This document shows positions 1 through 14,061 of a stretch of 64,000 bases of DNA, in pieces (position 1 is the stretch's first letter; each line of letters starts with the position of its first letter). Source of the stretch: an uncultured Aquimarina sp. (GTDB lineage Bacteria; Bacteroidota; Bacteroidia; Flavobacteriales; Flavobacteriaceae); NCBI RefSeq assembly GCF_947496855.1, contig NZ_CANMED010000002.1:1-64000 (forward strand). The letters are read 5' to 3'. The notes under the pieces were generated by a model. The model saw nothing but the letters and a program-made list of their open reading frames with translations, was not told where the DNA came from and did no database searches. The translations under genes were made by a program, and so were the position numbers.

Positions 1-2147
1 ACCACTGCAATATCAGGCGCAGGTACATCAGAAATACATGCTACAATAATTGATGTTGGATCGCTCGCAGTAGGATCCGTCGTATCATTTATGGTAATGG
101 TCTGAGTAACATTAATACTATTACCAGCTTCATCAGTTATACTGTAGGTTCTGATAATAATTTCCGGGTTACTATTCCCATTACTAACATCACTTTCAAA
201 AGCTACTGTTGGAGTAACTCCACTATTATCGGCCTCATCCGTAACTACCGCTATATCGGAGGCAGGTACATTTGCAGAACATTGAATATTAATTGGCAAG
301 GGATCGCTAGCAGTAGGATTTTCTGTATCAGAATTAGACAATGTAGTTACATCATTAATATGATAAATTTGCCCTTGATTTCCCACTCCATCTTCTAAGA
401 ATAGATATATATCATATGTGGTACTAGCGTTCAAAGAAGAAATCACTTCTTCTACATCTGTATTAGCTACATCCATTAAAAAATTTCCATTTTCTGTCGC
501 TCCTACTCCATTCAAAACATCATCATAATCAACAGTTCCAGAAAAATTACCTGGAAAAATTGCATAATGAATCGTTCCCGTTTCAGGACCATTAACAAGT
601 AAAGTAAACCCTGATATAGTTTCATCAATTGCTTGAGGATACCCATTATTTAAAGGCATTGCATAATGATCTCCCCCAAAAATAACGTAAGCTTCTCCTG
701 TTCTATCAGTACTCCCTTCTGGGGTTTCACCAGGACTTCCTACAATAAAATCAGAAATACCATCACCATTAAAATCTCCATCACCACTTACCGGCCTCCC
801 TATATTACTTGTTCTAAACCCTGGAATAACAAACCCGTTAACTCCGTTCAATGAACTTTCGTTTATAGGATTAGGAAATCCTGTTGTATTTCCAAATACT
901 ATATAAGCATTAGCATCTGGCCCAGATTCTGCTCGATATACGGAGATAAAATCATTTATACCATCTTGATTAACATCTCCTATAGAAGCCGAAGTTAAAC
1001 CGCCTGGCAAAATAAAACCATATGTACCATCTTGAACACTACTAAATGGAATATAAGCTGGAAAAGGATCCGTTGATTCTTTCCCAAAGATAGCAGCTGT
1101 TTCAGAAAAGAAATCATCAATACCATCTCCATTGATATCACCTAATGTTCCTGTAAATGCCAAAAAATTGCCTCCTGTATGATCTACTACAAAACCATTA
1201 CTCCCATCTAAAGAAGTAACATCGACCAGTGGGTCAAAGCTATTACGTCCAAAAATGACGTGAGTTCTTTCTATAAAAGAACTACCTGAAGTTATTGACC
1301 AATCACCTAATATAATATCATTAAACCCATCATTATTAATATCCCCTGTTCCACCAACAAGATATGCTTCTCGTAAACTATTGCTATATGAGCTGGTCCT
1401 AAAACCATTCATACCGTCTAGCCAAGAAGCATCAACACTAATTGGAAAATTTGAAGGTCTCCCAAAGAAAATCCAAGCGTCGCCGCCAATGGCTTTCCCT
1501 AATATAAAATCGTTTCGACCATCTCCATTTACATCACCCAAAGCTCCTATATCATTCATTTGTGTCGAAACACTATTGGTGATAATAGTAAATCCCTCGG
1601 AAAAACCTATATCATTTCTATTGATTACGGCATTGAACGGAGAAGATTTCCCATATAAAACAACGATTCCTGGTGAAAATCTACTTGCTCCGATAACAAC
1701 ATCATCAATACCATCTCCATTAATATCACCAACACCTTCAACAACCAATCCAATAGCTTCTGTTTGAGTTATTCCTTCAAAAACAAAACCATTAGAACCA
1801 TTTAATATATTTACATCGAACACGGAGGGAAAGCCAGTATCTGATCCAAAAATGATATATACAACTCCAGCTCCTACAACTCCTCCCCTTTCAGCACTAC
1901 TAAAAGAAATTGATATATCTTCTAAACCATCATTATTAATGTCTCCTATAAATTTAGTTTCTGCCCCAAACTGTGAACTTGCCTCTACACCAGGAATCCG
2001 AAAACCATTACTACCATTCAACGAAGTAATATCGAAATTGGCAGGATATAATTGATTTTGTGCTTGCGAAGTAGAACAATTTAAGTAACATAAAAAAATA
2101 AAAACAACATTCTTGATTATAAAAGTGACAATACTCTTATTCTTCAT
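1..2147 (-). CDS. FG-GAP repeat surface protein with HYR-like repeats, 3' end outside window
   Basis: The frame is open from an ATG at 2147 to the left edge, giving 715 codons without a stop. Residues 1-30 are a signal peptide ending near SQAQ. Residues about 31-496 hold seven FG-GAP (integrin-alpha type) repeats, each with a calcium-loop core such as DINGDGIDDV, DVNGDGRNDF or DFNGDGISDF. An Ig/Fn3-like domain follows (about 497-600), then at least two tandem domains of about 75 residues built on ASDP...VPAxDIAVV, resembling HYR or related repeats. FG-GAP blades form a beta-propeller used in adhesion. I infer a secreted or cell-surface protein, probably T9SS cargo, but the C-terminus that would carry the sorting domain is not visible. 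Confidence 0.85.
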   Translation of the reverse strand, partial: MKNKSIVTFIIKNVVFIFLCYLNCSTSQAQNQLYPANFDITSLNGSNGFRIPGVEASSQFGAETKFIGDINNDGLEDISISFSSAERGGVVGAGVVYIIFGSDTGFPSVFDVNILNGSNGFVFEGITQTEAIGLVVEGVGDINGDGIDDVVIGASRFSPGIVVLYGKSSPFNAVINRNDIGFSEGFTIITNSVSTQMNDIGALGDVNGDGRNDFILGKAIGGDAWIFFGRPSNFPISVDASWLDGMNGFRTSSYSNSLREAYLVGGTGDINNDGFNDIILGDWSITSGSSFIERTHVIFGRNSFDPLVDVTSLDGSNGFVVDHTGGNFLAFTGTLGDINGDGIDDFFSETAAIFGKESTDPFPAYIPFSSVQDGTYGFILPGGLTSASIGDVNQDGINDFISVYRAESGPDANAYIVFGNTTGFPNPINESSLNGVNGFVIPGFRTSNIGRPVSGDGDFNGDGISDFIVGSPGETPEGSTDRTGEAYVIFGGDHYAMPLNNGYPQAIDETISGFTLLVNGPETGTIHYAIFPGNFSGTVDYDDVLNGVGATENGNFLMDVANTDVEEVISSLNASTTYDIYLFLEDGVGNQGQIYHINDVTTLSNSDTENPTASDPLPINIQCSANVPASDIAVVTDEADNSGVTPTVAFESDVSNGNSNPEIIIRTYSITDEAGNSINVTQTITINDTTDPTASDPTSIIVACISDVPAPDIAV

Positions 2148-2166
2148 GATTCTAATTTTAGCAGAA

Positions 2167-2195
2167 CAAAATTATATAGAACATAAATATTTCAA
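2167..2195 (-). promoter_or_regulatory. Bacteroidetes-type promoter of the FG-GAP gene
   Basis: On the minus strand TTG (2195-2193) is followed after 18 nt by TAATTTTG (2174-2167), matching the Bacteroidetes consensus TTG-N17-23-TAnnTTTG. It lies 20 nt upstream of the ATG at 2147. Confidence 0.6.
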
Positions 2196-2231
2196 ATCAC
2201 CATAAACAGTGTTTTGAAAAAACAAGCACCT

Positions 2232-2300
2232 CCCTGTTTTCAGGGTATAGTTTTTCACATAAAAACGTGAGTATTCTATCTTAGATATATTGCATATTTG
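2232..2300 (+). promoter_or_regulatory. Palindrome plus promoter module, copy A (upstream of the DKNYY gene)
   Basis: A perfect palindrome CCCTG-TTTT-CAGGG (2232-2245) is followed by TTTTCAC, a GTG, AGATATAT and CAT-A-TTTGTA ending at 2302. The same blocks in the same order occur at 4219-4287, and the distance from CAGGGTA to TTTG is 56 nt in both. I read it as an activator or repressor operator plus the -7 region of the promoter for the gene at 2391. Confidence 0.55.
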
Positions 2301-2390
2301 TAAATTAATTTTAGAATTAAAATGTAGAAACAATTTTATTAGTAAGATTTTATAACATCAAATTTTGGATAAAACAACTAAGAGTTATAC

Positions 2391-3725
2391 ATGAAAACAC
2401 TACAAATCATTGGCATTATATTGGGAATTTTGATAGGCATTATTTTTGTCTATTATACTATAGTGATAGTACTTTTTTCATGGGTTTCATCTCCATCGAC
2501 CAATGGAGCCGTAGCTATCAATAACAATATTAGTAATCAATATTATTATAAAGAAAACGAAATTGTATACGTAAGTAATGCTAACTTTTTTAGTTTAGGA
2601 GCAAGAAAAATTGAAAAAGCAGATCGAACATCTTTTGAAGTAATAGCATATAACTTAGCTAAAGATAAAAATTACGTTTACTATAACGAGAAAATTCTTA
2701 TAGGTGCAGATCCAAAAACATTTGAACCGATCCTTGATACAGTTTCTGAGGAAAAATACACTTCCTACTACTACACCAAAGATGCTAATCATGTATTTTA
2801 TTTTTTTGACATTATAGAAGAAGCAAATCCAAGCACTTTTCAATATTTATGCGGTGATTTTTCAAAAGATGACAAAACTCTTTTTTACAACAAGAACAAA
2901 ATCCTCAATATCGATGAAATACCATTAGCAATAAAAAATGATACTGCTGGAAACTATTTAAAAATTGGAAATGCTATTTATTATAAAAATCATCTTTTAA
3001 AAGTTACCAATGCTGATCGTTTTGAAGTTATTAAAGGAGCTTTTGCTACAGATTCTCATGCTATCCATTTCCATAATAAAGTAATTAAGGATGTTGATGC
3101 TGCAACTTTTAAAATCATTAACAAAGACTATCAATCAGATAAAGACCATCTCTACTATAAGACCAAAGCATTACCAAATGGTGATCCAAATAGTTACAAG
3201 TTTATAGATCCGTTATTCTCTAAGGATAAAAATAACTTATATTATATCGGTAGCGTTGTAATGAATCCCAACGCTAAAGATTATAGTACCAAAAAAATTA
3301 ATCATTTAAATAACAACTACAATCTAAGATGGTTGAATTATGATGAAAACCATGTCATTTTTACTGATGAAAAAAACTTGAATAAAATCTCTGAGAGTCA
3401 CACACTCTTTGAAAATGAGATATACTGCTTCTCCAACCGAATTATTGATGCTGATTATAAAAGCTTTACGGTATACGAAAATTGCGAAGATAGATATGCA
3501 AGGGATCAAAATCACATTTTTTATATGGCATCAGTAATTAAAGATGCCGATTTTGATTCCTTTGAAACCATAAACGCTAGCTTCGCAAAAGACAAAAACC
3601 ACGTATACTTTTTTGAAAAACGTTTGCTCTATACGGATCCGGATACCTTTGTATATAAAGAAGGAATGTATGGAGAAACTATTGATGATCATACTGATAA
3701 ATTAATTTATACCCCTTTAAACTAA
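2391..3725 (+). CDS. DKNYY-repeat membrane-anchored protein
   Basis: The protein has 444 residues. Residues 5-30 form one hydrophobic segment, an uncleaved anchor or signal, and the rest is a tandem array of about ten imperfect units of roughly 35 residues with the pattern KDKNxVYYxxKxIxxADPxTFEVI. This is the signature of the DKNYY family, a repeat protein of unknown function, and each unit probably makes a small beta blade or solenoid turn. The repeats are presumably periplasmic. It shares an upstream promoter module with the operon starting at 4363, so the two are probably co-regulated. No catalytic motif is visible. Confidence 0.75.
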   Translation: MKTLQIIGIILGILIGIIFVYYTIVIVLFSWVSSPSTNGAVAINNNISNQYYYKENEIVYVSNANFFSLGARKIEKADRTSFEVIAYNLAKDKNYVYYNEKILIGADPKTFEPILDTVSEEKYTSYYYTKDANHVFYFFDIIEEANPSTFQYLCGDFSKDDKTLFYNKNKILNIDEIPLAIKNDTAGNYLKIGNAIYYKNHLLKVTNADRFEVIKGAFATDSHAIHFHNKVIKDVDAATFKIINKDYQSDKDHLYYKTKALPNGDPNSYKFIDPLFSKDKNNLYYIGSVVMNPNAKDYSTKKINHLNNNYNLRWLNYDENHVIFTDEKNLNKISESHTLFENEIYCFSNRIIDADYKSFTVYENCEDRYARDQNHIFYMASVIKDADFDSFETINASFAKDKNHVYFFEKRLLYTDPDTFVYKEGMYGETIDDHTDKLIYTPLN

Positions 3726-3738
3726 TGGTAATGAATTC

Positions 3739-4133
3739 TTATGAAAATTCATCCATCATCTTTACTCCAGGAAATTGAACAAACGAATGATTATCTTCAT
3801 TATAATATGTGGCTACAAGGTTCTATAACGTTAGAATTCTACTTTCAAACAGTCCCATATCTCCTGTTTTTAGTTGCGCTAATGTTATAAAAAAGCCGAA
3901 CACCTCTCTGGTTTTTTTATGTTCTTCATATCCTTGTCCCAATGTAGTAAAAACAAGAATATTTTATTTCTTTAGCTAATATATTAGAATCTTCAAAATA
4001 CTTTGTTTCTATTATTTCCGTTTGTTCGGATATTCCTGCACTTATAAGTAAGTACGTTTTTTTTTGATGCAATAAAATAATAATGACTCTTTTAATTTTC
4101 TTTAAGAGTAAGATGTTTTTCTAGGTCCTTCAT
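3739..4133 (-). pseudogene. Decayed gene, unknown family
   Basis: Read on the minus strand, three consecutive stretches of protein-like sequence are joined by lesions. The first begins MKDLEKHLTLKEN at 4133 and hits a stop. The second (YLLISAGISEQTEIIETKY and onward) is in another frame after a run of nine A. The third (LGQGYEEHKKTREVFGFF and onward, then a stop, then LVATYYNEDNHSFVQFPG) is in a further frame and ends at a TAA at 3739. At least two frameshifts and two in-frame stops are needed, so this is a degraded gene. I cannot name the parent family. Confidence 0.5.
3889..3918 (+). terminator. Possible intrinsic terminator downstream of the DKNYY gene
   Basis: AAAAAAGCC (3889-3897) pairs with GGTTTTTTT (3910-3918) across a 12-nt loop, with one G-U pair. 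It lies about 165 nt after the DKNYY stop and inside the decayed minus-strand gene, so it may be fortuitous. Confidence 0.3.
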
Positions 4134-4218
4134 TAGAATAAATATTTTCTTACTATTCACAATAGGTTATGACGCATTTATGATTTTAAAATAGGTTTTT
4201 AAAACAAAACTTTTTTCA

Positions 4219-4287
4219 CTGTTTTCAGGGTAGTCATTTTCACCAGAAAGGGTGTTCCGCACAGCTCAGATATATCACATCTTTGTA
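4219..4287 (+). promoter_or_regulatory. Palindrome plus promoter module, copy B (upstream of the SPFH/LipL32 operon)
   Basis: CTG-TTTT-CAG-GGTA is followed by TTTTCAC, GTG, AGATATAT and CAT-C-TTTGTA (ending 4287) at the same offsets as in copy A at 2232-2300. Between the blocks the two sequences have diverged, so the blocks look selected. It lies 76 nt before the first gene of the operon at 4363. Confidence 0.55.
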
Positions 4288-4362
4288 CTGTAGTTATTGA
4301 TAAACAATACATCAAGATTTACAGCATTAAACTAATTACTAACCCTATAAAACCATAAAGAT

Positions 4363-4785
4363 ATGATCTGGGGAATCTCATTAATTTTATTAAGTATTTT
4401 AGCAGTACCATCATTATTGCTTTCAAAAAAACCTAACGCCAAAGAACTTTTAGAAAAAATCGAACCATACCAAGGATGGATTGGACTTGTATTTTGTTTC
4501 TGGGGAGTTTGGGGAATTATTTCAGCTATCTTAAATCTTGGGTGGCTTACTACATACCCAATCTGGTGGGTGACATTATTAGCAGGTAACATTATTTCTG
4601 CAGTACTAGGATTTATGTTAGGTTTTGGACTTATCAATAAATTTTTCTTATCCAAAAATGAAGCAGCAAAAGAAAAAGCTAACGAACTAAGAGCAAAATT
4701 AGCTCCTAAACAAGGTAAACTTGGAGTATTTGGACTAATCGTTGGTGGATGGATGATTGTAGCATCATTCCTTTTCTTTACATAA
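4363..4785 (+). CDS. Small four-helix membrane protein
   Basis: The protein has 140 residues and four predicted membrane segments (about 1-22, 39-57, 67-90 and 118-140), separated by short basic or charged loops including a [19 protein letters not shown] linker. I recognise no family. It is the first gene of a seven-gene run (4363-9221) on one strand with a zinc-ribbon protein, a LipL32-family protein and an SPFH protein, which suggests a membrane-stress or envelope role. The start follows the module-B promoter by about 76 nt. Confidence 0.65.
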
Positions 4786-4791
4786 TATGTT

Positions 4792-4860
4792 AGTTAGTTG
4801 AAGAATGGGGAGAGAACGAAACCTTTCTTTAAGATTGAATTCTCTCTCCTATTCCTAACT
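4792..4860 (+). other. Intercistronic hairpin
   Basis: AGTTAG (4792-4797), GAAT (4803-4806) and GGGGAGAGAA (4807-4816) pair with TTCTCTCTCC (4840-4849), ATTC (4851-4854) and CTAACT (4855-4860). No T-run follows, so it looks like an RNA-processing or stability hairpin between the first two genes of the operon rather than a terminator. Confidence 0.4.
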
Positions 4861-4908
4861 CAAGTAAAGTTTCAAACTAAAAGAATATCTAACATACATT
4901 GATTTGCC

Positions 4909-5253
4909 ATGATTATATTCGGAACAAGTTCTTCTACCATACATCCTGCAAAACTTGATGGAGGTTGCTGTCCTTTTTGCAAAACAAAAAATCAGATGTG
5001 GATTCAGGGGTATAGAAAATACTTTCATGTATTCTGGATTCCGTTTTTCCCACTATGGAAAAAAATCTACTCAGTATGTAGTCACTGCAAAGGTGTTTTT
5101 GAAAAAAAAGAATTTAAAGACCAGGAATTGATCACTAGTTTCGAATACTTCGAAAACAATAAAATCAAAATTCCTTGGTATCACTTTACCGGTATTATCC
5201 TTGTATTATCATTGATTACGTTAATATTCATATTACCATTTTTAACTAAATAA
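4909..5253 (+). CDS. Zinc-ribbon protein with C-terminal membrane anchor
   Basis: The protein has 114 residues. The N-terminal half carries a zinc ribbon with CPFC (Cys21/Cys24) and CSHC (Cys57/Cys60); the arrangement, with an aromatic FHVFWIPFFPLWK stretch between the knuckles, matches the zinc-ribbon_15 type. Residues about 90-112 form one membrane segment. In Bacillus subtilis a zinc-ribbon membrane protein (YdjG) works with an SPFH protein (YdjI) to bind PspA at the membrane. The SPFH gene four genes downstream suggests a comparable partnership here, which is inference. Confidence 0.7.
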   Translation: MIIFGTSSSTIHPAKLDGGCCPFCKTKNQMWIQGYRKYFHVFWIPFFPLWKKIYSVCSHCKGVFEKKEFKDQELITSFEYFENNKIKIPWYHFTGIILVLSLITLIFILPFLTK

Positions 5254-5283
5254 ACAATTTTAAATTACGCAAATTATCAAATT

Positions 5284-5973
5284 ATGAAAACAAAGATTTT
5301 ATTTCTATTAAGCATTATAGCACTTGGAACTTCAGCAACATTACAAGCGCAAAAATTAAAAAAATTTGGAAGCTCAATCGAGAAAAAAATAGGTCCAAAA
5401 ACTATCAAAGTACCATATACAGAAGTAGTATCATATCTTGGATATGCAGCTCCAGGTAACGAAGATGAAGTAAAGGATGGAAAAAAATTCTACTACATTT
5501 ACGTATGGGTGCCACTTGCAGCTCCAGAATTAGGAGTGCGAATGATGTCTCCAGTGGGGAAAAATAAAATTAAAAAAGCTACAATGTCTAAGGCATACGA
5601 AGAGAATGCTAAATCCGCAGACTATTTTGATACGTATATTACACTAGAACGTTCAGATATTATTAGTACAGATAATATCAGTCAAGATGCTGTAGATAAT
5701 GCTAACTGGACTACTCTAGAACGTAATGATGATAGTGGAGAAATGCCAAAACAACCAAGTGGTAGTACTTATAACTCTTTGTTAAGATACAAAAGTGATA
5801 TTAATGATCCTTTAAAAGCACTGACTGTTGGGTTATACCGTATAGGTTTTACTACATATAAAACCGGAGAAGTAAAAGGTACTTTCGTAGCAGAAGTTGC
5901 TGCTCCAATAAAAATACCAGGTGTAGTAATGGCTAAAACCATTAAAGACCTAAAAACGGGACTTAGTAAATAA
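5284..5973 (+). CDS. LipL32-family secreted protein, copy 1
   Basis: The protein has 229 residues with a signal peptide cleaved near LQAQ (residues 20-23) and no lipobox cysteine. The mature part reads like Leptospira LipL32 (PF12103): PYTEVVSYLGY, an ELGVRMMSPVG block, and a GLYRIGFTTYKTGEVKG block near the C-terminus correspond to well-known LipL32 segments. The residues known from LipL32 to bind calcium (Asp132, Thr133, Asp164, Asp165, Tyr178) appear as Asp116, Thr117, Asp149, Asp150 and Tyr163 with almost the same spacing. It is therefore probably a calcium-binding envelope or secreted protein. LipL32 is a major surface lipoprotein of pathogenic leptospires; here the lipid anchor is missing. 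Copy 2 lies at 11290. Confidence 0.8.
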   Translation: MKTKILFLLSIIALGTSATLQAQKLKKFGSSIEKKIGPKTIKVPYTEVVSYLGYAAPGNEDEVKDGKKFYYIYVWVPLAAPELGVRMMSPVGKNKIKKATMSKAYEENAKSADYFDTYITLERSDIISTDNISQDAVDNANWTTLERNDDSGEMPKQPSGSTYNSLLRYKSDINDPLKALTVGLYRIGFTTYKTGEVKGTFVAEVAAPIKIPGVVMAKTIKDLKTGLSK

Positions 5974-6000
5974 TACATTCTTAACAAACAAAAACTGGAT

Positions 6001-6036
6001 AGTTATTCCTATGTCAACAAAAACATAGGGATAACT
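6001..6036 (+). terminator. Attenuator-like hairpin after LipL32 copy 1
   Basis: AGTTATTCCTATGT (6001-6014) pairs with ACATAGGGATAACT (6023-6036) across an 8-nt loop; 13 pairs are Watson-Crick and one is G-U. A short T-rich stretch follows. It lies inside the gene run, 28 nt after the LipL32-family stop, and could let that gene be expressed more highly than those downstream. Confidence 0.6.
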
Positions 6037-6079
6037 TTCTTTCACTTCTTCTTTCTAAAACAATTAATTCACTTACGTT

Positions 6080-6280
6080 ATGCAAGATGACGCGGAAAAA
6101 AATCAAAAAGAAAAAAAGAGTATTCTCGATGATATATTAGGCAATGCTATTTCTTCTACCAAGAAATACGAAGAAACAAACGCTGGTCTTGAGACGAAAA
6201 AATGTAAAAACTGTGGTGCTGCTAGACCAAGCGATACAGATCTTAAATACTGCGATTTCTGCGAAAATCAATTTTACTAA
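6080..6280 (+). CDS. Small zinc-ribbon protein
   Basis: The protein has 66 residues: a charged, helical N-terminus (1-38) and a C-terminal zinc ribbon with CKNC (Cys42/Cys45) and CDFC (Cys58/Cys61). There is no signal or membrane segment, so it should be cytoplasmic. Its gene ends 20 nt before the next one, which also carries a zinc ribbon. I infer an adaptor function within the SPFH operon; no specific family name is supported. Confidence 0.65.
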   Translation: MQDDAEKNQKEKKSILDDILGNAISSTKKYEETNAGLETKKCKNCGAARPSDTDLKYCDFCENQFY

Positions 6281-6300
6281 AACTTAACAAACCTATTAAG

Positions 6301-7068
6301 ATGTCTTTTACAGTCACACAAAATAGATGGAATACTTTTCTTACCAAAATTGAAGATCGATTTCACGAAGTACTGAGCAAAACAGAAGTTGTATTACCAT
6401 TATTATTTGAAGCTACTGATTTTGAAACTACAACTTTCCAAAATGCTTGGCAAGGGATATATTCACAAGCTTATGATTTGATTTCTAAAATAGAGGATAC
6501 TTGGTATAATAAAGTAGAAGACACCTTTTTAAACGTAGATTTAGATGATGACTCCATTCAATTAATCAAGGAACGAAATAAGGGGTTTCAACTTCAACAT
6601 AACCTAGATCAAGAATTAAAATCATATGAAGTTCGGATTTTCTCGGAAGCAGCAAAAAAACTACTGGCTATAGCAAAAGACACACTGTCTAAAGATTTTT
6701 CATGTACTCAATGTCAAGCAAAACTCCCTGTAAAAAATAATTTTTTCAGGTCTTATTACAGTACCTGCGATTATTGCCAAACTGTAAACACTTTCGAACC
6801 GGGAACCAAAGCAAGAAACATAGAACATTTTGCTATTGATGCCTTAGGACAAGCGGCAGCACTTGAGCATTATCTAAAATATGAAGAGCTTAAATTTCAA
6901 AACTACCTAAATGATCGAGATGTTTATGGAAAAGATGAGCTAGCAAACCAGTATCGAAAATACGTAGAAGCCTTTCTAAAGAAAAGGATCGAAATCATTC
7001 CGGATTATCAAGATAGATATGAAAAAGATCTCAACGCTAAAATGTCATTGATAATCGATTATTCATAA
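6301..7068 (+). CDS. Helical protein with internal zinc ribbon
   Basis: The protein has 255 residues and is predominantly alpha-helical, with a zinc ribbon inserted near the middle (CTQC at 135/138, CDYC at 156/159) and no signal peptide or membrane helix. The helical part on both sides is rich in aromatic and charged residues. I do not recognise the family. It lies between the 66-residue zinc-ribbon gene and the SPFH gene with short gaps (20 and 18 nt), so it is almost certainly co-transcribed with them. A role as a cytoplasmic partner of the SPFH protein, in the position occupied by YdjH in the Bacillus ydjFGHI operon, is conjecture. Confidence 0.65.
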   Translation: MSFTVTQNRWNTFLTKIEDRFHEVLSKTEVVLPLLFEATDFETTTFQNAWQGIYSQAYDLISKIEDTWYNKVEDTFLNVDLDDDSIQLIKERNKGFQLQHNLDQELKSYEVRIFSEAAKKLLAIAKDTLSKDFSCTQCQAKLPVKNNFFRSYYSTCDYCQTVNTFEPGTKARNIEHFAIDALGQAAALEHYLKYEELKFQNYLNDRDVYGKDELANQYRKYVEAFLKKRIEIIPDYQDRYEKDLNAKMSLIIDYS

Positions 7069-7086
7069 ATCAAAAAAAAGAAAAAT

Positions 7087-8112
7087 ATGGCTAATTCATT
7101 TAGTAATCAATTACGCTCCGTTATTGAGTGGCAAAATCCAACGTCCGATACTCTTTTTGAGAAATGGACTCAAAGTGGTGATGAAATTAAAAATGCATCA
7201 AAACTCATCGTCGGACCAGGACAAGGATGTCTTTTTGTATATGAAGGTAAGGTGGAAGGTTTTTTTGAAGAAGAAGGGTTATATGATCTTAAAACGGGCA
7301 ATATTCCTTTCTGGACGACCATCAAAAATATAATGTATAAATTTGAGTCTGCCCATAAAGTAGGAATCTATTTTTATCGAAAAGCAGAAATGCAAAATAT
7401 TCGTTGGGGCACTCCTTCTCCAATAACCTATAAAGATCCTGTATATAATTTTCCGGTTGGACTAGGTGCATTTGGTAATTTTTCATTTAAGATTACTAAA
7501 GCTATTGACTTTTTTACTAATGTAATTGCAGGTGAAGATTATTACCCAGTAAAAGCAATACAAAAAGTGATTTTATCAAGAATCACACAACCTATAAGTG
7601 ATTTTCTTGCCAAAGCATCCTTTAGTTATGTTGACATTGACAAGCATCGTATTGAGATTGCCGAATTTTCTAAAGCCTCATGCGAAAGCATCTTCAATGA
7701 ACTAGGTTTTGAACTACTAGATTTTAGAATAGAAGGAACCAGTTTTGATGAGGAAACAAGAACTAGAATCAGTAGAATAGCAGATATGAGTGCTGAAGCA
7801 CAAGCGATAAAAGAACTTGGTGTAAGCTATCAAGATTATCAACAGCTCGAAGCGCTTAAGAACATGGCAAAAAATGAAGGTGGTGGAAACTTAGGTATGC
7901 AAATGGGTGCTGGTCTTGGTATGGGACAAATGATGGGAAATATGATGAACGGTCAGAATCAACAACAACAGCAAAATACTCCTCCACCAACACAATCAAA
8001 CCCAGATGATCCTATGCAAAAATTAGAAAAACTAAAAAAAATGTTTGATGCTGGGTTTATTGATGAGCAAGAATACAAACAGAAAAAACAAGATATACTA
8101 TCTCAATTTTAA
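7087..8112 (+). CDS. SPFH-domain protein with C-terminal SHOCT (YdjI / virion-core type)
   Basis: The protein has 341 residues. Residues about 30-245 match the SPFH-type virion-core-protein/YdjI group: GQGCLFVYEGKVEGFFEEEG near the start, then a long beta-helix-beta section and a coiled-coil rich in alanine and glutamate. A Gly/Met/Gln-rich linker (264-305) leads to a SHOCT domain (about 308-341, with LKKMFDAGFIDEQEYKQKK). SPFH proteins form membrane-associated oligomers. In Bacillus, YdjI cooperates with zinc-ribbon YdjG and a PspA homologue in membrane stress. The neighbouring zinc-ribbon genes fit that theme. There is no transmembrane segment, so membrane contact would be peripheral or through partners. 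Confidence 0.85.
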   Translation: MANSFSNQLRSVIEWQNPTSDTLFEKWTQSGDEIKNASKLIVGPGQGCLFVYEGKVEGFFEEEGLYDLKTGNIPFWTTIKNIMYKFESAHKVGIYFYRKAEMQNIRWGTPSPITYKDPVYNFPVGLGAFGNFSFKITKAIDFFTNVIAGEDYYPVKAIQKVILSRITQPISDFLAKASFSYVDIDKHRIEIAEFSKASCESIFNELGFELLDFRIEGTSFDEETRTRISRIADMSAEAQAIKELGVSYQDYQQLEALKNMAKNEGGGNLGMQMGAGLGMGQMMGNMMNGQNQQQQQNTPPPTQSNPDDPMQKLEKLKKMFDAGFIDEQEYKQKKQDILSQF

Positions 8113-8141
8113 TAAAAATTAATTACAAAAACCAACATATC

Positions 8142-9221
8142 ATGAGCAACACAAATGAACTATATCAAAACGTTTCTGGAAAACAAAAAGATGAATATAA
8201 AGAATATCTAACAGTAATAGATCGAATGGATTGGCACAGTTATGATTATACTACCTGGCCTTGTGCAGATTTATCTTTCCGCGATATCGAAAAAGATGAA
8301 GCATGTGATTTATGGCCATTTAAACCTAATCTAAACGAGCCACATTGGGTAGATCTTAATAGTCAATTTAGATCAGGTATCAGGAGATACGGATACGCAA
8401 ACAGATTCGAAATGCCGGAACAAGTACAAGAGCTTTCTCATAGTATTGCTAAAGAAAAACTCTCAACTATTCAAGGACTTCAACATAGTAATCCAGATGA
8501 ATTTAATACTCAAATTAAACACTATGGTTTTTCTAATGAGAAACATTTTTCTTGGGGGATTTCACTATTAGATTCTGCAGAAGAACAAGCGATGGATGCT
8601 GCTGATGATTTTCTGAAGGAACAAAAGGCAAAACTTGATTCGCAAATGGATGCTCACATAGAAGCCGCTTCGGAAGGTGGATTACTAGATCCAATAAACG
8701 GAATTGATATGGAAACTTGGGCTGCTGCAAATGCAAAAATCGCAGGCGGTATGGATTTTGAAGATGTATTGAAAGTAGTTGAAACAGAAAAACCCATTTG
8801 GGATGAAGTTTCTGCAGAGTGGACCGCTAGAATGTCTCAGGATACTACGTTTGCAATTTCAAAAGTATATGGTGATGCATTTCTGAATTCTGATATTGGA
8901 AAATTTGCATCAACAGGAACCAATGAAACATCAGAAACAAGTGCTACTGCAAGTGGAAGTTCATTAGAAAAAGTTTCTGAAGATTTTGAATTATACATAA
9001 AAATTATGTGTCATCAAAACATGGGTGCTGCACAAGGAAAAGATGCTGCTTCTATACTTAATGAATATGGACTTAACGTTAGCGATTGGAGCTCTGTCGG
9101 AGCACAGTGGTCCACAAAAATGGCAACTGATACCCGCATGGCTTTAAAAATGGGAGAACTAATGGAAAAATACAATGCGGAGTTTGCTACAGCAGGAGCT
9201 GGAGACGATATAGATTTCTAG
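8142..9221 (+). CDS. Repeat-containing acidic protein (DUF6620-like)
   Basis: The protein has 359 residues, is acidic, and has no signal peptide or membrane helix. Two homologous modules of about 70 residues are visible: one around 190-255 containing WDEVSAEWTARMSQDTTFAI, and a second around 285-350 containing WSSVGAQWSTKMATDTRMAL. A low-complexity Ser/Thr/Ala linker (about 260-275) separates them. The N-terminal 120 residues contain several conserved-looking Trp and Tyr residues. From memory this resembles the DUF6620 group of uncharacterised Bacteroidetes proteins; I am unsure. It is the last gene of the SPFH/LipL32 operon and is followed by a long hairpin. Confidence 0.6.
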   Translation: MSNTNELYQNVSGKQKDEYKEYLTVIDRMDWHSYDYTTWPCADLSFRDIEKDEACDLWPFKPNLNEPHWVDLNSQFRSGIRRYGYANRFEMPEQVQELSHSIAKEKLSTIQGLQHSNPDEFNTQIKHYGFSNEKHFSWGISLLDSAEEQAMDAADDFLKEQKAKLDSQMDAHIEAASEGGLLDPINGIDMETWAAANAKIAGGMDFEDVLKVVETEKPIWDEVSAEWTARMSQDTTFAISKVYGDAFLNSDIGKFASTGTNETSETSATASGSSLEKVSEDFELYIKIMCHQNMGAAQGKDAASILNEYGLNVSDWSSVGAQWSTKMATDTRMALKMGELMEKYNAEFATAGAGDDIDF

Positions 9222-9242
9222 GGGTATTAGTTTCTAGATAAC

Positions 9243-9312
9243 AATGACCTGATGGTTATCAATAAATTCCATGACATTAGATATAGTTAATACTTGATAA
9301 AATCAGGTCATT
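9243..9312 (+). terminator. Long stem-loop closing the SPFH operon
   Basis: AATGACCTGAT (9243-9253) pairs perfectly with ATCAGGTCATT (9302-9312), and inside it TTATCAA (9256-9262) pairs with TTGATAA (9294-9300). The result is an 18-bp stem with a small internal loop and a 31-nt apical loop, followed by CGTTTTA. It is unusually long for an intrinsic terminator but sits 21 nt after the last stop codon of the operon. Confidence 0.5.
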
Positions 9313-9397
9313 CGTTTTATGAAATAGCAGTATATTTCTAATCCTTATGATCAACGCTAGAAAAAAAGAAGAAGAGTAATACAACTAATTCAAGAAA

Positions 9398-10057
9398 ATG
9401 AAATCAGTCCTTTTATTAATCACATTATGTATGCAAATGACATATTCTCAAAACACGAAGCCAAACGAAGAAGTAAAACGACTAGTTGAATTAGGAAGAG
9501 ATCATATTATCAAACTGGCTTTAAAAAAAATAGGAGAGCAAGAAACAGTAGAGATCAAAAAAGAGGATTTCCATTTCATTACTGTAAAAGCAAGTGATCA
9601 AAGAATATTAGTAGAACTGGGTTATAATGTTTTATACTTACCCAAGAATACTAGTCATTATTCGGGTATTTCGGTAGAGTTTCCATCTAAATTTATTTCC
9701 AAAAGCAGCGTAAATAATGATGGAAAAAACACTACTTTTTATCGACCAACATCAGAATACTTAAAAGTTATTAATTTCATAATGAATCCTGATGGAACAC
9801 GTACTGATATTTTTAACAAAGGAAAGAGATGGTCCCCAACGATTATTTATGAAAAAGAAAAACACTACTTAGTAGATTTTTCTGCAAGAGATCCTGAATT
9901 AGGAGGAGGGTTTTCTAAAGAAGAGATAGATAAAGAAACTGGAGAAGTACTCTCTACTCTGAGTGGTCATTATGCAAGAATGCCAGAAGATATGTTTCCG
10001 AGAGATTTATCAGGTGAAAAAATAGAACGAGAAGAATTTATTGAAATTAGCAATTGA
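9398..10057 (+). CDS. Secreted protein of unknown function
   Basis: The protein has 219 residues with a signal peptide (1-17, cleavage near TYSQ) and no lipobox. The mature part is a mix of charged helix (KPNEEVKRLVELGRDHIIKLALKK) and beta-rich sequence ending in an acidic tail. It contains no recognisable catalytic motif. It probably resides in the periplasm. It lies downstream of the SPFH operon on the same strand but is separated from it by the long hairpin at 9243-9312, so it is likely a separate transcription unit. I do not recognise a family. Confidence 0.6.
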   Translation: MKSVLLLITLCMQMTYSQNTKPNEEVKRLVELGRDHIIKLALKKIGEQETVEIKKEDFHFITVKASDQRILVELGYNVLYLPKNTSHYSGISVEFPSKFISKSSVNNDGKNTTFYRPTSEYLKVINFIMNPDGTRTDIFNKGKRWSPTIIYEKEKHYLVDFSARDPELGGGFSKEEIDKETGEVLSTLSGHYARMPEDMFPRDLSGEKIEREEFIEISN

Positions 10058-10225
10058 CTTCAAAATAGAGAAACTTGAGAATAAAATTATATTAATTTTT
10101 GGAGTCACAATAGAAACCAAAAATTAATAATAATCTTGTATCTAGTGTAAAACCTGATCTAAATTAAATTGATCATAATTATTAAAAAACACTTAAAATG
10201 CAGGAAACAAAATCGTAATAGTCAT

Positions 10226-10768
10226 ATGGTTAAAAAAGTATTTATTCTTCTAGTCTTAATTTTGAATAATCCAATGAAAGCACAAGAACCAAATTCGGAG
10301 ATGTATGTCACCGCGGTTGCCGAACTGATTGATATTTTTTCTACAGGAAAAAGACATAATTCTCATGTCTTTACTTTTAAAATTAAAAAAGTACTTTCAG
10401 GAAGTACGAACGATTCAATTTTCAAAACTCAAGAAATCTTTAATGATTTTGGTGCTTCCGACATATTTTTAAAAACTAAATCACACCTATACAATATTGA
10501 ACCTAAAGAAAGTACGGATGTAGTTATAAAATACACATCGAACGGTCGTCTAAAATGGATTGCAGAAAAGAATAGAAGATTTAGTTTAGAAAGCTTAGAG
10601 TTACTTTTAGAAACATATACTAAGAAAAATAATCAAAAATCTAATTTTAACATGCTCATCGAACGTGAAGGAAAATTATTTTTTAGTGATGATGGCAAAA
10701 ATCAGAAAATAGCAGTAGAATCCCGTACAGGTTACAGAAACTGGGTTATCGCAACAATTGACGAATAA
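10226..10768 (+). CDS. Secreted protein of unknown function
   Basis: I chose the ATG at 10226 (180 residues) because it gives a proper signal peptide (MVKKVFILLVLILNNPMKAQ); the frame could extend to a TTG at 10169 but that would bury the signal. The mature sequence is about 160 residues, basic, and beta-rich, with a segment KIKKVLSGSTNDSIFKTQEI that resembles exported proteins having a CbiA/NlpE-like beta fold, though not enough to name. It is preceded by an AT-rich gap of about 170 nt. Function unknown. Confidence 0.55.
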   Translation: MVKKVFILLVLILNNPMKAQEPNSEMYVTAVAELIDIFSTGKRHNSHVFTFKIKKVLSGSTNDSIFKTQEIFNDFGASDIFLKTKSHLYNIEPKESTDVVIKYTSNGRLKWIAEKNRRFSLESLELLLETYTKKNNQKSNFNMLIEREGKLFFSDDGKNQKIAVESRTGYRNWVIATIDE

Positions 10769-10807
10769 AAAAAATATTAAGAATAATTGCTCAGAAAAAA
10801 AGCCACT

Positions 10808-11117
10808 CTATGTGCGTCTATTACTTTTATGCTCCAAAGGCATCAATTCCTTTATCTTCTCTACTATATTATAAGCTGCAGGACAAACGACGATATTTTT
10901 GCATAGTTAAGTCAGAAATCTAATAAAACTTTTTTCGATCGGTATAAGGGAACTCTTTACAAGCTTTTGATCTTACATCATAAATCAAATAATAATTATC
11001 TGCATCCAAAAAAAGCATTAGATGTTTCTTGTAACACAAAATCTACATCCTCATCTTTTTTCAGATATTGATCTTCAAACTGAATAGATTTCATTTTTGA
11101 ATGCTTCGAAATTCGAA
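10808..11117 (-). pseudogene. Decayed 3' half of a YkgJ cysteine-cluster gene (duplicate of 12265-12783)
   Basis: On the minus strand this segment aligns almost base for base with 12265-12571, the C-terminal 100 codons of the intact YkgJ gene, including the stop position (TAG here, TAA there). It carries single-base indels and substitutions. For example the TGT codon for the cysteine in NYCLIYD has become TAT, and the segment that encoded EVPCAF is scrambled. No start or N-terminal half remains. It is the relic of a local duplication, now separated from the intact gene by the second LipL32-family gene. Confidence 0.8.
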
Positions 11118-11289
11118 TTTAAAACCATAATGACTCTCCAAAATATTTTTAAAAAAGTCATTAAAAAAAATTATGCAAAAAAAACGTTAAAAAAATACAG
11201 TTTATAATTAAAAAATATTCATATTTGATACTCTTTTTAACAAAAAATAAGTGTGTTTAATTTAATCAATAACTTCAATAACTAAAAAC

Positions 11290-11973
11290 ATGAAAATAAA
11301 AATTTTACTTTTACTAAGTATATTTACTTTAGGTAGTTCTGTTGACTCTCAAGCACAGAAATTAAAAAAATTCGGTAGTTCAATAGAAAAAAAGATTGGT
11401 CCAAAAACCATAAAAGTACCATATACAGAAGTTGTATCTTACCTTGGATATGCATCTCCTGGAAATGAAGATGAAGTAAAAGATGGGAAAAAGTTTTACT
11501 ACATATACATGTGGGTACCTGCTGTGGCAACAGAACTAGGTGTAAGAATGAAATCGCCAGTGGGAAAAACTAAAATAAAAAAGGCAACTAAGTCTAAAGC
11601 TTATGAAGAAAACGCAAGTTCTGATGAGTATTTTGACACCTATATTACTCTTGAACGATCAGATATTATTAGCAAAGATAATATTAGTGAAGACGCTGTA
11701 AAGAATGCTAACTGGACTACACTAGATCGTAATGATGATAGTAGTGAAATGCCAAAACAACCTAGCGGAAGTAGTTACAATTCTTTATTAAGATATAAAA
11801 GTGAAATTGGCGATCCGCTTAAGGCATTAACTATTGGTTTATATCGTATTGGATTCACAACTTATAAAAAAGGTGAAGTAAAAGGTACTTTTCTTGCAGA
11901 AGTTGCAGCTCCTATCAAACTACCAGGTGTAGCGATGGCAAAAACTATCGAAGAATTAAAAAAAGGATTATAA
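11290..11973 (+). CDS. LipL32-family secreted protein, copy 2
   Basis: The protein has 227 residues and is about 85% identical to copy 1 at 5284 (192 of 227 positions by hand count); most differences fall in the signal peptide and at surface-type positions. The signal peptide ends near SQAQ and there is no lipobox. The putative calcium ligands Asp116, Thr117, Asp149, Asp150 and Tyr163 are all kept. Unlike copy 1 it is a single-gene unit with its own terminator at 12001. About 60 nt upstream is an AT-rich region with CATATTTG that resembles the TTTG element of the module upstream of copy 1's operon, but no CAGGG palindrome is present, so regulation probably differs. Confidence 0.8.
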   Translation: MKIKILLLLSIFTLGSSVDSQAQKLKKFGSSIEKKIGPKTIKVPYTEVVSYLGYASPGNEDEVKDGKKFYYIYMWVPAVATELGVRMKSPVGKTKIKKATKSKAYEENASSDEYFDTYITLERSDIISKDNISEDAVKNANWTTLDRNDDSSEMPKQPSGSSYNSLLRYKSEIGDPLKALTIGLYRIGFTTYKKGEVKGTFLAEVAAPIKLPGVAMAKTIEELKKGL

Positions 11974-12000
11974 GATAAATACCTAAAACGCACTTATAAG

Positions 12001-12041
12001 TATCCCTGCATTTTAATAATAAAAGTGCGGGGATAATTTTT
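12001..12041 (+). terminator. Intrinsic terminator of LipL32 copy 2
   Basis: TATCCCTGCATTTT (12001-12014) pairs with AAAAGTGCGGGGATA (12021-12035) with one bulged base, and a T-run follows. It starts 28 nt after the stop codon, the same distance as the hairpin after copy 1. Confidence 0.75.
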
Positions 12042-12142
12042 TACAGCATAATAGTAAAAATCACACTTTCTAAGAAGGTGGCTTTATAAAATTCCCAAAA
12101 GAGGAAATGACCAACATATAAATTAGTTTCATATTGTGGGCC

Positions 12143-12175
12143 AGACCTGTCAGGTTTTAAAAACCTGACAGGTCT
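12143..12175. repeat. 33-bp interspersed palindrome
   Basis: AGACCTGTCAGGTTTT (12143-12158) is repeated in perfect inverted orientation at 12160-12175 around a single central base. Palindromes built on GACCTGnCAGG are, from memory, frequent interspersed elements in flavobacterial genomes. A related one lies at 32668-32699. It sits between convergent genes, where it may also work as a bidirectional terminator. Confidence 0.6.
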
Positions 12176-12264
12176 AAAACAGGCAAAGCAACGATAACAT
12201 GATCACCAGCTAAGCAGGTGGTTTTTTTAAAGTAAAATAAATAATTATTAAGGAGTACACGAGA

Positions 12265-12783
12265 TTATGCGCGTCTATTACTTTTATGCTCTAAAGGCAT
12301 TAACTCCTTCATTTTCTCTACTATATTATAAGCAGCTGGACAAACGGCTATATTTTGCATTGTTAAATCAGAAATTTGATGAAATTTTTTTCGATCTGTA
12401 TGTGGGAACTCTTTACAAGCTTTTGGTCTCACATCATAAATCAAACAATAATTATCCGCAGCCAAAAAAGCACAAGGCACTTCCTTCAAGACTAAATCAC
12501 CATCTCCATCTTTTTTCAAATATTGATCTTCAAACTGAATAGATTTCATTTTTAAATGCTTCGAAATTCGATCTACATCAATATCTGTAAACAAAGGTCC
12601 CGTGGTTTTGCAACAATTCGCACACTCTAAACAATCCGTTTTCTGAAATTCTTTGGTATGCAAATCCTGCATGAATGTATCCAAATTCTTTGGTGGTTTC
12701 TTTTTAAGCTTTGCAAAATACTTTTTATTCTCGTTCTGTGTATCTTTGGCCAGTTTCGGTAATTGATCTATGAATTCTTGCAT
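12265..12783 (-). CDS. YkgJ-family cysteine-cluster protein
   Basis: The protein has 172 residues. The cluster CLECANCC (Cys51, 54, 57, 58) is followed by Cys104 (VPCAF), Cys113 (NYCLIYD), Cys123 (KACKEFP) and Cys148 (VCPAA), which is the arrangement of the YkgJ / UPF0153 group thought to bind zinc or an iron-sulfur cluster. The molecular role is not established. There is no signal peptide. A TAATTTTG element (12795-12788 on the minus strand) sits only 4 nt before the ATG, so if it is used the mRNA would be nearly leaderless. A broken duplicate of the 3' half lies at 10808-11117. Confidence 0.85.
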   Translation of the reverse strand: MQEFIDQLPKLAKDTQNENKKYFAKLKKKPPKNLDTFMQDLHTKEFQKTDCLECANCCKTTGPLFTDIDVDRISKHLKMKSIQFEDQYLKKDGDGDLVLKEVPCAFLAADNYCLIYDVRPKACKEFPHTDRKKFHQISDLTMQNIAVCPAAYNIVEKMKELMPLEHKSNRRA

Positions 12784-12832
12784 AGAACAAAATTACGAAT
12801 TATGAATTACGAATTTCGAATTAAGAACTATA

Positions 12833-13543
12833 ATGATTAACAAAGATATTTTCGGAGAAGCGATTAAAGATTTTTATAACAAAAAGTACAGCGAAGATAT
12901 TATAGTACAGGCTCCGGATTTTGATGACGATATCATACCGATCCCTTATTTATTTCGAACTTATTCTGAAATGCCAAAAATTGAGCAAAAAGCATTGGAT
13001 CTTGCTTTTGGAGATGTTTTAGATGTAGGTTGTGGTGCCGGGAGTCATAGTTTATTCCTTCAGAAAGATAGAAAACTAAATGTGCACGCAATCGATATTT
13101 CTGAAGGAGCGATTAAAATATGTAAGGAAAGAGGAGTTGCCAATACATCTGTTCAGGATATTTTTAATCTTAAAGAAATACAGTACGATACTTTACTGTT
13201 TTTAATGAACGGAAGCGGAATCATAGGAAAACTTGCTAATATTGATAAATTTTTTTCCGACGTAAAAAACTTATTAAAAACTAACGGTCAAATCCTAATT
13301 GACTCTTCAGATATCTCCTATTTATTTGCTGAGGATGATGGAAGCTTTTGGGTAGATGCATCTACCGGATATTACGGAGAGATGCAGTATCGCCTGAAAT
13401 ACAAGAAACTTCAGTCTGATTGGTTTGATTGGTTATATATTGACTATAACACGTTACAGAATGCAGCAAACGCCCACGGTTTTATTTGTGAGTTAGTGCT
13501 AGAAGGAGAAAACAATGATTATTTAGCTAAGCTATCTATTTAA
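12833..13543 (+). CDS. Class I SAM-dependent methyltransferase
   Basis: The protein has 236 residues. Motif I (DVLDVGCGAG, residues 61-70) and an acidic residue after the second strand (HAIDIS) define a Rossmann-fold S-adenosylmethionine methyltransferase of the Methyltransf_11/25 type. The substrate cannot be read from the sequence. The gene is divergent from the YkgJ gene across a 49-nt gap made of AATTACGAA-like direct repeats, and its 3' end overlaps the convergent DUF2059 gene by 4 nt. Confidence 0.85.
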   Translation: MINKDIFGEAIKDFYNKKYSEDIIVQAPDFDDDIIPIPYLFRTYSEMPKIEQKALDLAFGDVLDVGCGAGSHSLFLQKDRKLNVHAIDISEGAIKICKERGVANTSVQDIFNLKEIQYDTLLFLMNGSGIIGKLANIDKFFSDVKNLLKTNGQILIDSSDISYLFAEDDGSFWVDASTGYYGEMQYRLKYKKLQSDWFDWLYIDYNTLQNAANAHGFICELVLEGENNDYLAKLSI

Positions 13544-14061
13544 TATCCTTTATTTTTCAGTTTATTAATCGTTTCGGTATACAAATCCCTACTCCATTGT
13601 TCACTGACTTCAGCAACCATTGTTCTTAATGAATTACTTTGATTTTGGACTTTTTTCCCTACTTCAGAATCATAGAAAGCGGATAATTTGCCTTTTTGAT
13701 TATCGCTAAGCTGAGTTCTATCCTTCACCATTTGCTGCCCAGTTTCAGATTCATAAAAAACAATAAGCTGTTTGATATCTTCATGTGAGAAATTGCTGCG
13801 ATACGCAGATACTAATAATGATTTAATAGTAGTCAATGCAGCTATTTTATCTCCTTTTAATTCTTCCCAAATTTTATCAGGTATACCCTGAGTACTATAC
13901 TGTTGTTTTAACAAAGTAAACATTTGATCTATTGCTGCGTCATATTGCTGTTCGGTTCCATTTAATTCAAAATATCGAATAGCATCTTGCTGGTACGATC
14001 TTTGTGACATGCAAACAGTACTTGTTAAAAATAAAGTTAAAGCAAAAACTATATCTCTCAT
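13540..14061 (-). CDS. DUF2059 secreted protein
   Basis: The protein has 173 residues with a signal peptide (1-19, ending near CMSQ). The DUF2059 pattern is clear: an FSHEDIKQLIVFYESETGQQM block followed by a second FYDSEVGKKV block. Proteins of this family are periplasmic helical proteins of unknown function. It is convergent with, and slightly overlaps, the methyltransferase gene, and is divergent from the lipoprotein metalloprotease gene at 14107, leaving 45 nt for both promoters. Confidence 0.8.
   Translation of the reverse strand: MRDIVFALTLFLTSTVCMSQRSYQQDAIRYFELNGTEQQYDAAIDQMFTLLKQQYSTQGIPDKIWEELKGDKIAALTTIKSLLVSAYRSNFSHEDIKQLIVFYESETGQQMVKDRTQLSDNQKGKLSAFYDSEVGKKVQNQSNSLRTMVAEVSEQWSRDLYTETINKLKNKGY

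What the first reader, a model, noticed from the sequence alone, without database searches (positions are those of the whole stretch)
5284..11973. Two LipL32-family proteins in a flavobacterium, with the calcium site kept
The products of 5284-5973 and 11290-11973 read along most of their length like Leptospira LipL32. The LipL32 calcium ligands (Asp132, Thr133, Asp164, Asp165, Tyr178 from established structures, as I recall) correspond to Asp116, Thr117, Asp149, Asp150 and Tyr163; the second Asp to Tyr spacing is identical and the others differ by one residue. Both have a plain signal peptide and lack the lipobox, so they are secreted or periplasmic, not lipidated. One copy is in an SPFH/zinc-ribbon operon, the other stands alone. 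A major leptospiral surface protein fold in a free-living bacterium suggests a general envelope or calcium-dependent role.
Basis: partly seen in the sequence, partly recalled or inferred. Interest (0 to 1): 0.8.

Follow-up and report, generated by a model that had tools for sequence, protein, structure and literature searches.

The report
LipL32 relatives in a signalling regulon
Two genes of a marine flavobacterium encode unlipidated relatives of LipL32, the very abundant and still unexplained protein of Leptospira; such relatives were already known, but one copy here proves to be the last gene of a unit behind a conserved control site that seems to belong to a two-component sensor system, which makes the protein's job testable.

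Summary
Both proteins match Pfam LipL32 (PF12103) over all 179 positions (E about 1e-80); copy A also matches LipL32 crystal sequences (E 2e-28) and, as a predicted fold, LipL32 structures. The five calcium ligands are invariant in 52 of 52 aligned relatives; no lipobox was found. The nearest relatives are Aquimarina. LipL32 relatives in flavobacteria were published in 2014 (PMC4080168), so that part is not new.

What appears new is the regulatory setting. In 48 of 87 examined genes LipL32 lies downstream of an uncharacterised membrane protein (TM140), whose promoter carries a conserved 70-bp element. A profile trained only on TM140 sites also finds it directly before LipL32 in 9 loci, and in other genomes before SIMPL, zinc-ribbon and TPR-kinase genes. 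A kinase plus LuxR-type regulator pair lies within 6 kb of LipL32 in 38 of 75 sources. In the window the element precedes TM140-zinc ribbon-LipL32 (4217) and a DKNYY gene (2232); copy B has none. A hairpin after LipL32 suggests that the SPFH genes are a separate unit.

Best reading: a periplasmic calcium-binding member of an envelope-response regulon. Regulator binding, location and function are inferred.

The parts
4217..4286 (+). operator-promoter element of the TM140-zinc ribbon-LipL32 unit: inverted repeat CACTG-TTTT-CAGGG, second repeat CACC-AGAAAG-GGTG, then TTTG of a flavobacterial -7 box (the box name is recalled)
   Evidence: profile R1: window 4219-4286, E 1.2e-14, G000:C2:4217-4286, E 2.0e-14; this site is one of the 23 training sites
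4363..4785 (+). TM140: 140-aa membrane protein without a known family, four long helices in the model
   Evidence: no Pfam match over its cut-off, no NCBIfam match; alignment of 22 rows, mean column identity 80%; model pLDDT 82.4; no PDB fold match with E <= 0.001
4909..5253 (+). zinc-ribbon membrane protein (Zn_ribbon_15)
   Evidence: PF17032 E 2.9e-7, over its cut-off; relatives behind the same element in two other genomes
5284..5973 (+). LipL32-family protein, copy A; signal peptide by eye, no lipobox
   Evidence: PF12103 E 1.2e-80; crystal sequences E 2.1e-28; fold E 3.1e-17 to 2wfk_C
6001..6036 (+). terminator-like hairpin after copy A
   Evidence: 14 pairs; -19.3 kcal/mol against a best of -6.7 in 20 shuffles
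2232..2301 (+). second operator-promoter element, before the DKNYY gene
   Evidence: R1 E 9.2e-10, 3.6e-9 genome-wide; not in the training set
2391..3725 (+). DKNYY-repeat protein, proposed member of the same regulon
   Evidence: PF13644 E 3.4e-40
11290..11973 (+). LipL32-family protein, copy B; no R1 site upstream
   Evidence: PF12103 E 9e-81; no R1 site; different clade from copy A in a quick tree
12001..12035 (+). terminator-like hairpin after copy B
   Evidence: 14 pairs; -19.0 kcal/mol against a best of -10.9 in 20 shuffles
6080..6280 (+). 66-aa ORF with a CxxC...CxxC pattern, first gene of the neighbouring module; not assigned to the LipL32 unit
   Evidence: sequence; no Pfam family
6301..9221 (+). 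neighbouring module: unknown 255-aa protein, SPFH/Band_7_1 protein with SHOCT end, DUF6620 protein; probably a separate unit

Best explanation
Both products are true members of the LipL32 family. They are exported by a plain signal peptide, are not lipidated, and most likely fold in the periplasm around a calcium ion. Copy A is the last gene of a short unit, TM140 - zinc-ribbon membrane protein - LipL32. A LuxR-type response regulator, phosphorylated by a TPR sensor histidine kinase (in this genome at contig C11, not next to LipL32), most likely binds the two inverted repeats ahead of the -7 box and switches the unit on as part of a small envelope-response regulon (TM140, SIMPL, zinc-ribbon, DKNYY, small lipoproteins, LipL32). 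Shown here by sequence: family, fold, ligand residues, absence of a lipobox, the shared element at linked and unlinked genes, the hairpin at the 3' end. Inferred: that this regulator binds the element, the signal, the periplasmic place, calcium binding and the protective role.
For: Family and fold. Ligands. No T9SS or other extra domain seen by Pfam at E <= 1. TM140 within 6 kb of LipL32 in 56 sources (75 sources given); kinase-regulator pair within 6 kb in 38, upstream, downstream or divergent. LipL32 and TM140 co-occur: 11 of 16 LipL32 genomes have TM140 against 32 of 381 others, p 2e-8 without correction for kinship. R1, trained on 23 TM140 sites only: 71 hits with E <= 0.01 in 1.49 Mb, of which 54 precede TM140, 9 LipL32, 3 DKNYY, 1 another gene, 4 none; among the 48 not used in training 31, 9, 3, 1 and 4. 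In 17 of 19 TM140 loci of genomes without LipL32 the element is also there, 8 of these 19 with an adjacent kinase-regulator pair. Where both genes exist but lie apart (G412, G414, G628, G723), 3 of 4 have the element 107-354 bp before LipL32. The kinase gene itself has it in G412 and G712. In this genome only four sites pass E 1e-4, two of them in the window.
Against: No binding, expression or location data. 30 of 87 LipL32 genes have no site by this test: 23 of 48 Aquimarina genes, copy B among them, and 7 of 39 others (L057 counted as having one at 354 bp, L045 with a site 1.5 kb upstream counted as none). G414 has both genes and no site; the five LipL32 genomes without TM140 have none; TM140 of G723 has none. 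In this genome the kinase promoter carries only the first repeat (CCCTGTTTTCAGGG exact at C11:38629; R1 E 0.11). Sites before LipL32 in Maribacter and some Cellulophaga are weak (E 1.8e-4 to 0.01). Six genomes with a site lack TM140, and several sites elsewhere precede genes of no evident relation. In 9 of 19 TM140 loci the nearby regulator sits by DnaG- and NadE-type genes without a kinase and may be unrelated (Pfam on one locus). 'Envelope response' rests on neighbours' families alone.
Confidence: 0.6

Rival explanations
1. The proteins are secreted or surface adhesins for algae and other hosts, as proposed for the Pseudoalteromonas tunicata relative, and the control system only times their production.
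For: P. tunicata without ptlL32 bound less to ECM and to the alga (abstract of PMC4080168). Many genomes with the gene carry names of alga-, sponge- or coral-linked strains (titles).
Against: No lipobox and no T9SS end domain seen by Pfam, so no known route to the surface was found. Leptospira LipL32 itself was reported to be mostly or wholly subsurface (abstract of PMC3544172). The co-regulated neighbours are membrane and periplasmic families, not adhesins.
Confidence: 0.25
2. LipL32 is an accessory of the SPFH/zinc-ribbon/DUF6620 membrane module next to it.
For: The module lies just downstream of LipL32 in 20 sources, same strand in the window.
Against: Those sources bear only two labels, Aquimarina and one unnamed MAG; a hairpin separates the two; in other genera LipL32 has TM140 and no such module.
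Confidence: 0.07
3. The neighbourhood is old synteny without function; LipL32 simply stayed where it was.
For: Sources are related, half of the genes examined are from Aquimarina, and the statistics are not corrected for kinship.
Against: Gene order varies (upstream, downstream, divergent, 4-5 kb away, unlinked), and the element follows LipL32 to unlinked places.
Confidence: 0.05

Closest known systems
LipL32 of Leptospira (PF12103; PDB 2zz8, 3frl, 2wfk)
   Same: whole-domain sequence match, predicted fold, all five calcium ligands
   Different: about 44% identical over the 192-residue stretch aligned, shorter loops, no lipidated cysteine; below the cut-off of the NCBI equivalog model
PtlL32 of Pseudoalteromonas tunicata and the flavobacterial orthologs listed in PMC4080168
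   Same: same family outside Leptospira, marine hosts, flavobacterial members already listed
   Different: in the parts I read, no control system, operon or promoter element is described; I could not fetch the Pseudoalteromonas genome to compare neighbours
LuxR-type two-component envelope systems such as LiaSR or VraSR (recalled)
   Same: HisKA_3 kinase plus GerE regulator, inverted-repeat element ahead of the promoter, membrane protein gene beside it
   Different: kinase has an N-terminal TPR region; its NCBIfam hits, LiaS among them, are all far below their cut-offs; TM140 has no known family; signal unknown

Membership tests
LipL32 family (PF12103) | profile match over the curated cut-off | tested here: met
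   269.7 and 270.2 bits against 25, positions 1-179 of 179
LipL32 family (PF12103) | LipL32 fold | tested here: met
   model pLDDT 79.5; the eight Foldseek hits with E <= 0.001 are all LipL32 chains, TM-scores 0.58-0.66; next hit E 2.1e-3
LipL32 family (PF12103) | five calcium ligands | tested here: met
   by alignment only: D116, T117, D149, D150, Y163, invariant in 52 of 52
LipL32 family (PF12103) | binds calcium | not testable with these tools
   needs purified protein
LipL32 of Leptospira (equivalog sense) | score over the NCBI equivalog cut-off (NF038394) | tested here: not met
   115.6 bits against 300
LipL32 of Leptospira (equivalog sense) | lipobox and lipidated cysteine | tested here: not met
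   no lipobox-like pattern in 87 of 87 ORFs
LipL32 of Leptospira (equivalog sense) | outer-membrane place, high abundance, matrix binding | not testable with these tools
   needs bench work
T9SS-secreted surface proteins | C-terminal secretion domain | tested here: not met
   no such Pfam domain at E <= 1
LuxR-type two-component regulon | kinase and regulator genes of that class beside the target | tested here: met
   HisKA_3, HATPase_c, Response_reg, GerE in L063; pair within 6 kb in 38 of 75 sources; in the window's genome it is present on another contig
LuxR-type two-component regulon | shared element at unlinked targets | tested here: met
LuxR-type two-component regulon | regulator binds the element | not testable with these tools
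   needs a binding or expression assay

The most novel reading that the evidence does not exclude
LipL32-family proteins are not host adhesins by origin but periplasmic, calcium-binding effectors of a so far undescribed envelope-response system of marine Bacteroidota (TPR kinase, LuxR-type regulator, TM140, SIMPL, zinc-ribbon protein, small lipoproteins); the mostly subsurface, dispensable and very abundant LipL32 of Leptospira is a lipidated, constitutively expressed descendant of such an effector.
Probability: 0.3. Interest if true: 0.8.

Novelty: new variant of a known kind. Interest (0 to 1): 0.6.

Why it matters
[quoted passage not shown] A setting in which relatives of the protein are switched on together with a defined set of membrane and periplasmic proteins gives the first concrete handle that I know of for asking what the fold does, in harmless and culturable marine bacteria: which signal, which partners, which defect without it.

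Tried and rejected
Viral contigs and plasmids: no relative of copy A. PADLOC: no defence family for five proteins of the locus. TM140 fold search: no PDB hit with E <= 0.001. sigma-70-type promoter scan of 2000-13600: 55 found against 56.8 in shuffles, so uninformative; terminators 4 against 4.7, so only the energies speak for the hairpins. A phylum-wide draw found the family in 1 of 395 genomes, this one. The tree is the quick one (careful search unfinished), its Leptospira row has a meaningless length; I use it only for the separate clades of copies A and B. I rejected 'SPFH operon' and 'surprising because unknown in flavobacteria'. The gap-free form of the training alignment is partly selection: 51 of 63 TM140 genes showed the element with up to 7 mismatches, and I took 23, leaving out for example L056 and L064 with a spacer one base longer; 12 of 63 showed none at that setting, mostly second TM140 copies, some of them seen twice through overlapping loci. 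The exact first repeat, up to 2 mismatches, gave 31 places in this genome against 7 for the reversed control; most of the 31 lack the rest of the element.
Full report
WHAT WAS CLAIMED. Two LipL32-family proteins at 5284-5973 and 11290-11973, with the calcium site kept, no lipobox, one in an SPFH/zinc-ribbon operon.

CHECK. Both ORFs are intact. Both match PF12103 over 179 of 179 positions, E 1.2e-80 and 9e-81. Copy A matches the three LipL32 crystal sequences at E 2.1e-28 to 3.6e-28. Its AlphaFold2 model, made from 52 aligned proteins of the window and fetched loci, has mean pLDDT 79.5; all eight PDB hits with E <= 0.001 are LipL32 chains (best 2wfk_C, E 3.1e-17, TM-score 0.64) and the next hit has E 2.1e-3. 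The TM-scores are moderate (0.58-0.66). These are invariant in 52 of 52 relatives. None of 87 family ORFs shows a lipobox-like pattern in its first 40 residues; 28 have a cysteine there, but not in that pattern. The NCBI equivalog model for LipL32 proper scores 115.6 bits against a cut-off of 300: a family member, not an equivalog.

WHERE. The nearest named relatives are Aquimarina isolates, 97% identical. This genome has two copies. In a draw of 397 genomes of the same family 16 have the gene, in a draw of 395 from the phylum only this one. The genome-contig scan gave 176 relatives, of which the best 80 places, 74 loci, were kept; all counts on loci below are on these 74 plus the window (75 sources, 87 LipL32 ORFs) and lean towards Aquimarina (48 of 87).

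ALREADY KNOWN. Gardiner et al. 2014 (PMC4080168; abstract, passages and section 12 seen) report orthologs in eleven other species, among them Cellulophaga algicola, C. lytica, Formosa agariphila and Ulvibacter, and reduced attachment of a P. tunicata mutant. So the family in flavobacteria is not new.

NEIGHBOURS. A clustering of ORFs around LipL32 gave four recurrent partners: TM140 (56 sources), a LuxR-type response regulator (40), a TPR histidine kinase (38) and a SIMPL protein (33). Pfam on the Algibacter set (L063): TPR, HisKA_3, HATPase_c; Response_reg, GerE; SIMPL; TM140 without a family. An adjacent kinase-regulator pair lies within 6 kb of LipL32 in 38 of 75 sources under 20 genus labels, some of them unnamed isolates or MAGs. 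It is upstream in most, downstream in Flavivirga (L065) and divergent in two Cyclobacteriaceae MAGs (L083, L085). In the window the pair is missing, but a tandem kinase-kinase-regulator set of the same type is on contig C11: best kinase match 79% identical to that beside LipL32 in A. amphilecti, regulator 98% to a LipL32-linked one.

TM140 AND LIPL32 TRAVEL TOGETHER. In the 397 genomes 43 have TM140. 11 of the 16 LipL32 genomes have it against 32 of 381 others (p 2e-8, no correction for kinship). In 7 of the 11 the two lie within 6 kb (coordinates). In 19 fetched TM140 loci from genomes without LipL32, TM140 has an adjacent kinase-regulator pair in 8 and a SIMPL-like gene near it in most; in 9 others the nearby regulator sits beside DnaG- and NadE-like genes and may be unrelated.

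THE ELEMENT. Upstream of TM140 stands a conserved stretch: CCCTGTTTTCAGGG, six bases, TTTTCACTAnAAAnGGnGTT, about 25 bases, TTTG. 51 of 63 TM140 genes show it with up to 7 mismatches. I aligned 23 of these (gap-free over 70 columns, TTTG invariant) and built a sequence-only profile, R1. Over the 75 sources (1.49 Mb) R1 gives 71 hits with E <= 0.01: 54 before TM140, 9 before LipL32, 3 before DKNYY genes, 1 before another gene, 4 before none; without the 23 training sites 31, 9, 3, 1 and 4. The nine LipL32 sites: Winogradskyella L067 (1e-14), L070 (1.4e-12), L066 (2.6e-10); an unnamed isolate L057 (3e-12, 354 bp away); Cellulophaga L072 (8.6e-6), L076 (1.8e-4), L071 (0.0067), L058 (0.01); Maribacter L061 (0.009). 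The last three are weak. Per gene: 48 of 87 LipL32 genes are downstream of TM140 with the element, 9 have it directly (one beyond my 350-bp limit), 30 have none; the 30 include 23 of 48 Aquimarina genes, copy B among them. The profile E-values are rough by the tool's own statement.

INDEPENDENT GENOMES. In the 397 genomes R1 (E <= 0.001) rings in 35, 29 of them with TM140 and 6 without. Ten of the 16 LipL32 genomes have a site, each directly before LipL32 or before a linked TM140. Of the four genomes in which both genes exist but lie apart, three (G412, G628, G723) have a site 354, 107 and 149 bp before LipL32; G414 has none. The five LipL32 genomes without TM140 have none. In 17 of 19 TM140 loci without LipL32 the element is before TM140. 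In this genome only four sites pass 1e-4: TM140 (window 4217), DKNYY (window 2232), a lipoprotein gene on C1 and a MORN_2 protein gene on C8. Of the remaining sites I fetched regions around 22 and one LipL32 site; several were not fetched. They precede, among others, a TPR kinase 83% identical to the LipL32-linked one of Flavivirga (G412), another kinase-regulator pair (G712), a SIMPL protein (G694), a lipoprotein followed by a protein of the window's zinc-ribbon family (G712, G539), and a relative of the C1 lipoprotein (G530, 48%); others precede genes of no evident relation. The element before the kinase is what best ties it to this two-component system. In the window's own genome the kinase promoter carries only the first repeat, exact, with R1 at E 0.11.

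WHERE THE UNIT ENDS. After LipL32 a stable hairpin follows in 81 of 87 genes (below -8 kcal/mol and below all of 20 shuffles), in the window at 6001-6036 and 12001-12035. So LipL32 is likely the last gene of its unit, and the SPFH module, next to LipL32 only under the labels Aquimarina and one MAG, is likely separate.

HOW IT LIKELY WORKS. The kinase senses an unknown envelope state, the regulator binds the repeats, TM140 and the zinc-ribbon or SIMPL proteins act at the inner membrane and in the periplasm, and LipL32 is exported and folds around calcium in the periplasm. A subsurface place was reported for Leptospira LipL32 (abstract of PMC3544172). Every step after the DNA element is inference.

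PRINT. In the held library I found no paper that links LipL32 to a response regulator in flavobacteria (listings only), and the 14-base repeat occurs in one unrelated paper. Subscription papers are mostly missing from that library.

VERDICT. Observation confirmed; family membership known in kind; the control element and regulon appear new and make the role of the fold testable. Interest 0.6.

Noticed in passing
window 2232-3725: A DKNYY-repeat gene with its own strong copy of the element (E 9.2e-10); the same pairing in L019 and L023.
   Followed up: partly
window 6080-9221: A 66-aa CxxC protein, an unknown 255-aa protein, an SPFH/Band_7_1 protein with SHOCT end and a DUF6620 protein follow LipL32 in 20 sources, nearly all Aquimarina.
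   Followed up: partly
window 12265-12783: A CxxCxxCC (YkgJ-like) gene, opposite strand, follows copy B and many Aquimarina second copies.
   Followed up: no
window 5284-5973 and 11290-11973: Copies A and B fall in separate clades, each with copies in the same place in related isolates, so the duplication is older than these species (quick tree).
   Followed up: partly
L082 9687-10367, L084 10001-10681: A third, divergent LipL32-family clade in two Aquimarina, in other surroundings and without the element.
   Followed up: no
L149 (G000 contig C5, about 180863-181279): A second TM140 gene of this genome (E 1.3e-78) without the element or the partners.
   Followed up: partly
L083, L085 upstream of LipL32: Cyclobacteriaceae MAGs show a variant, CACCATTTTCAG(G/T)G, then a TTCTACC...GGG-like part, between the divergent kinase and LipL32; seen by eye, not scored by R1.
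   Followed up: no
G000 contig C8, 90064-90133 (L183): Element (E 1.6e-5) before a secreted MORN_2-repeat protein.
   Followed up: no
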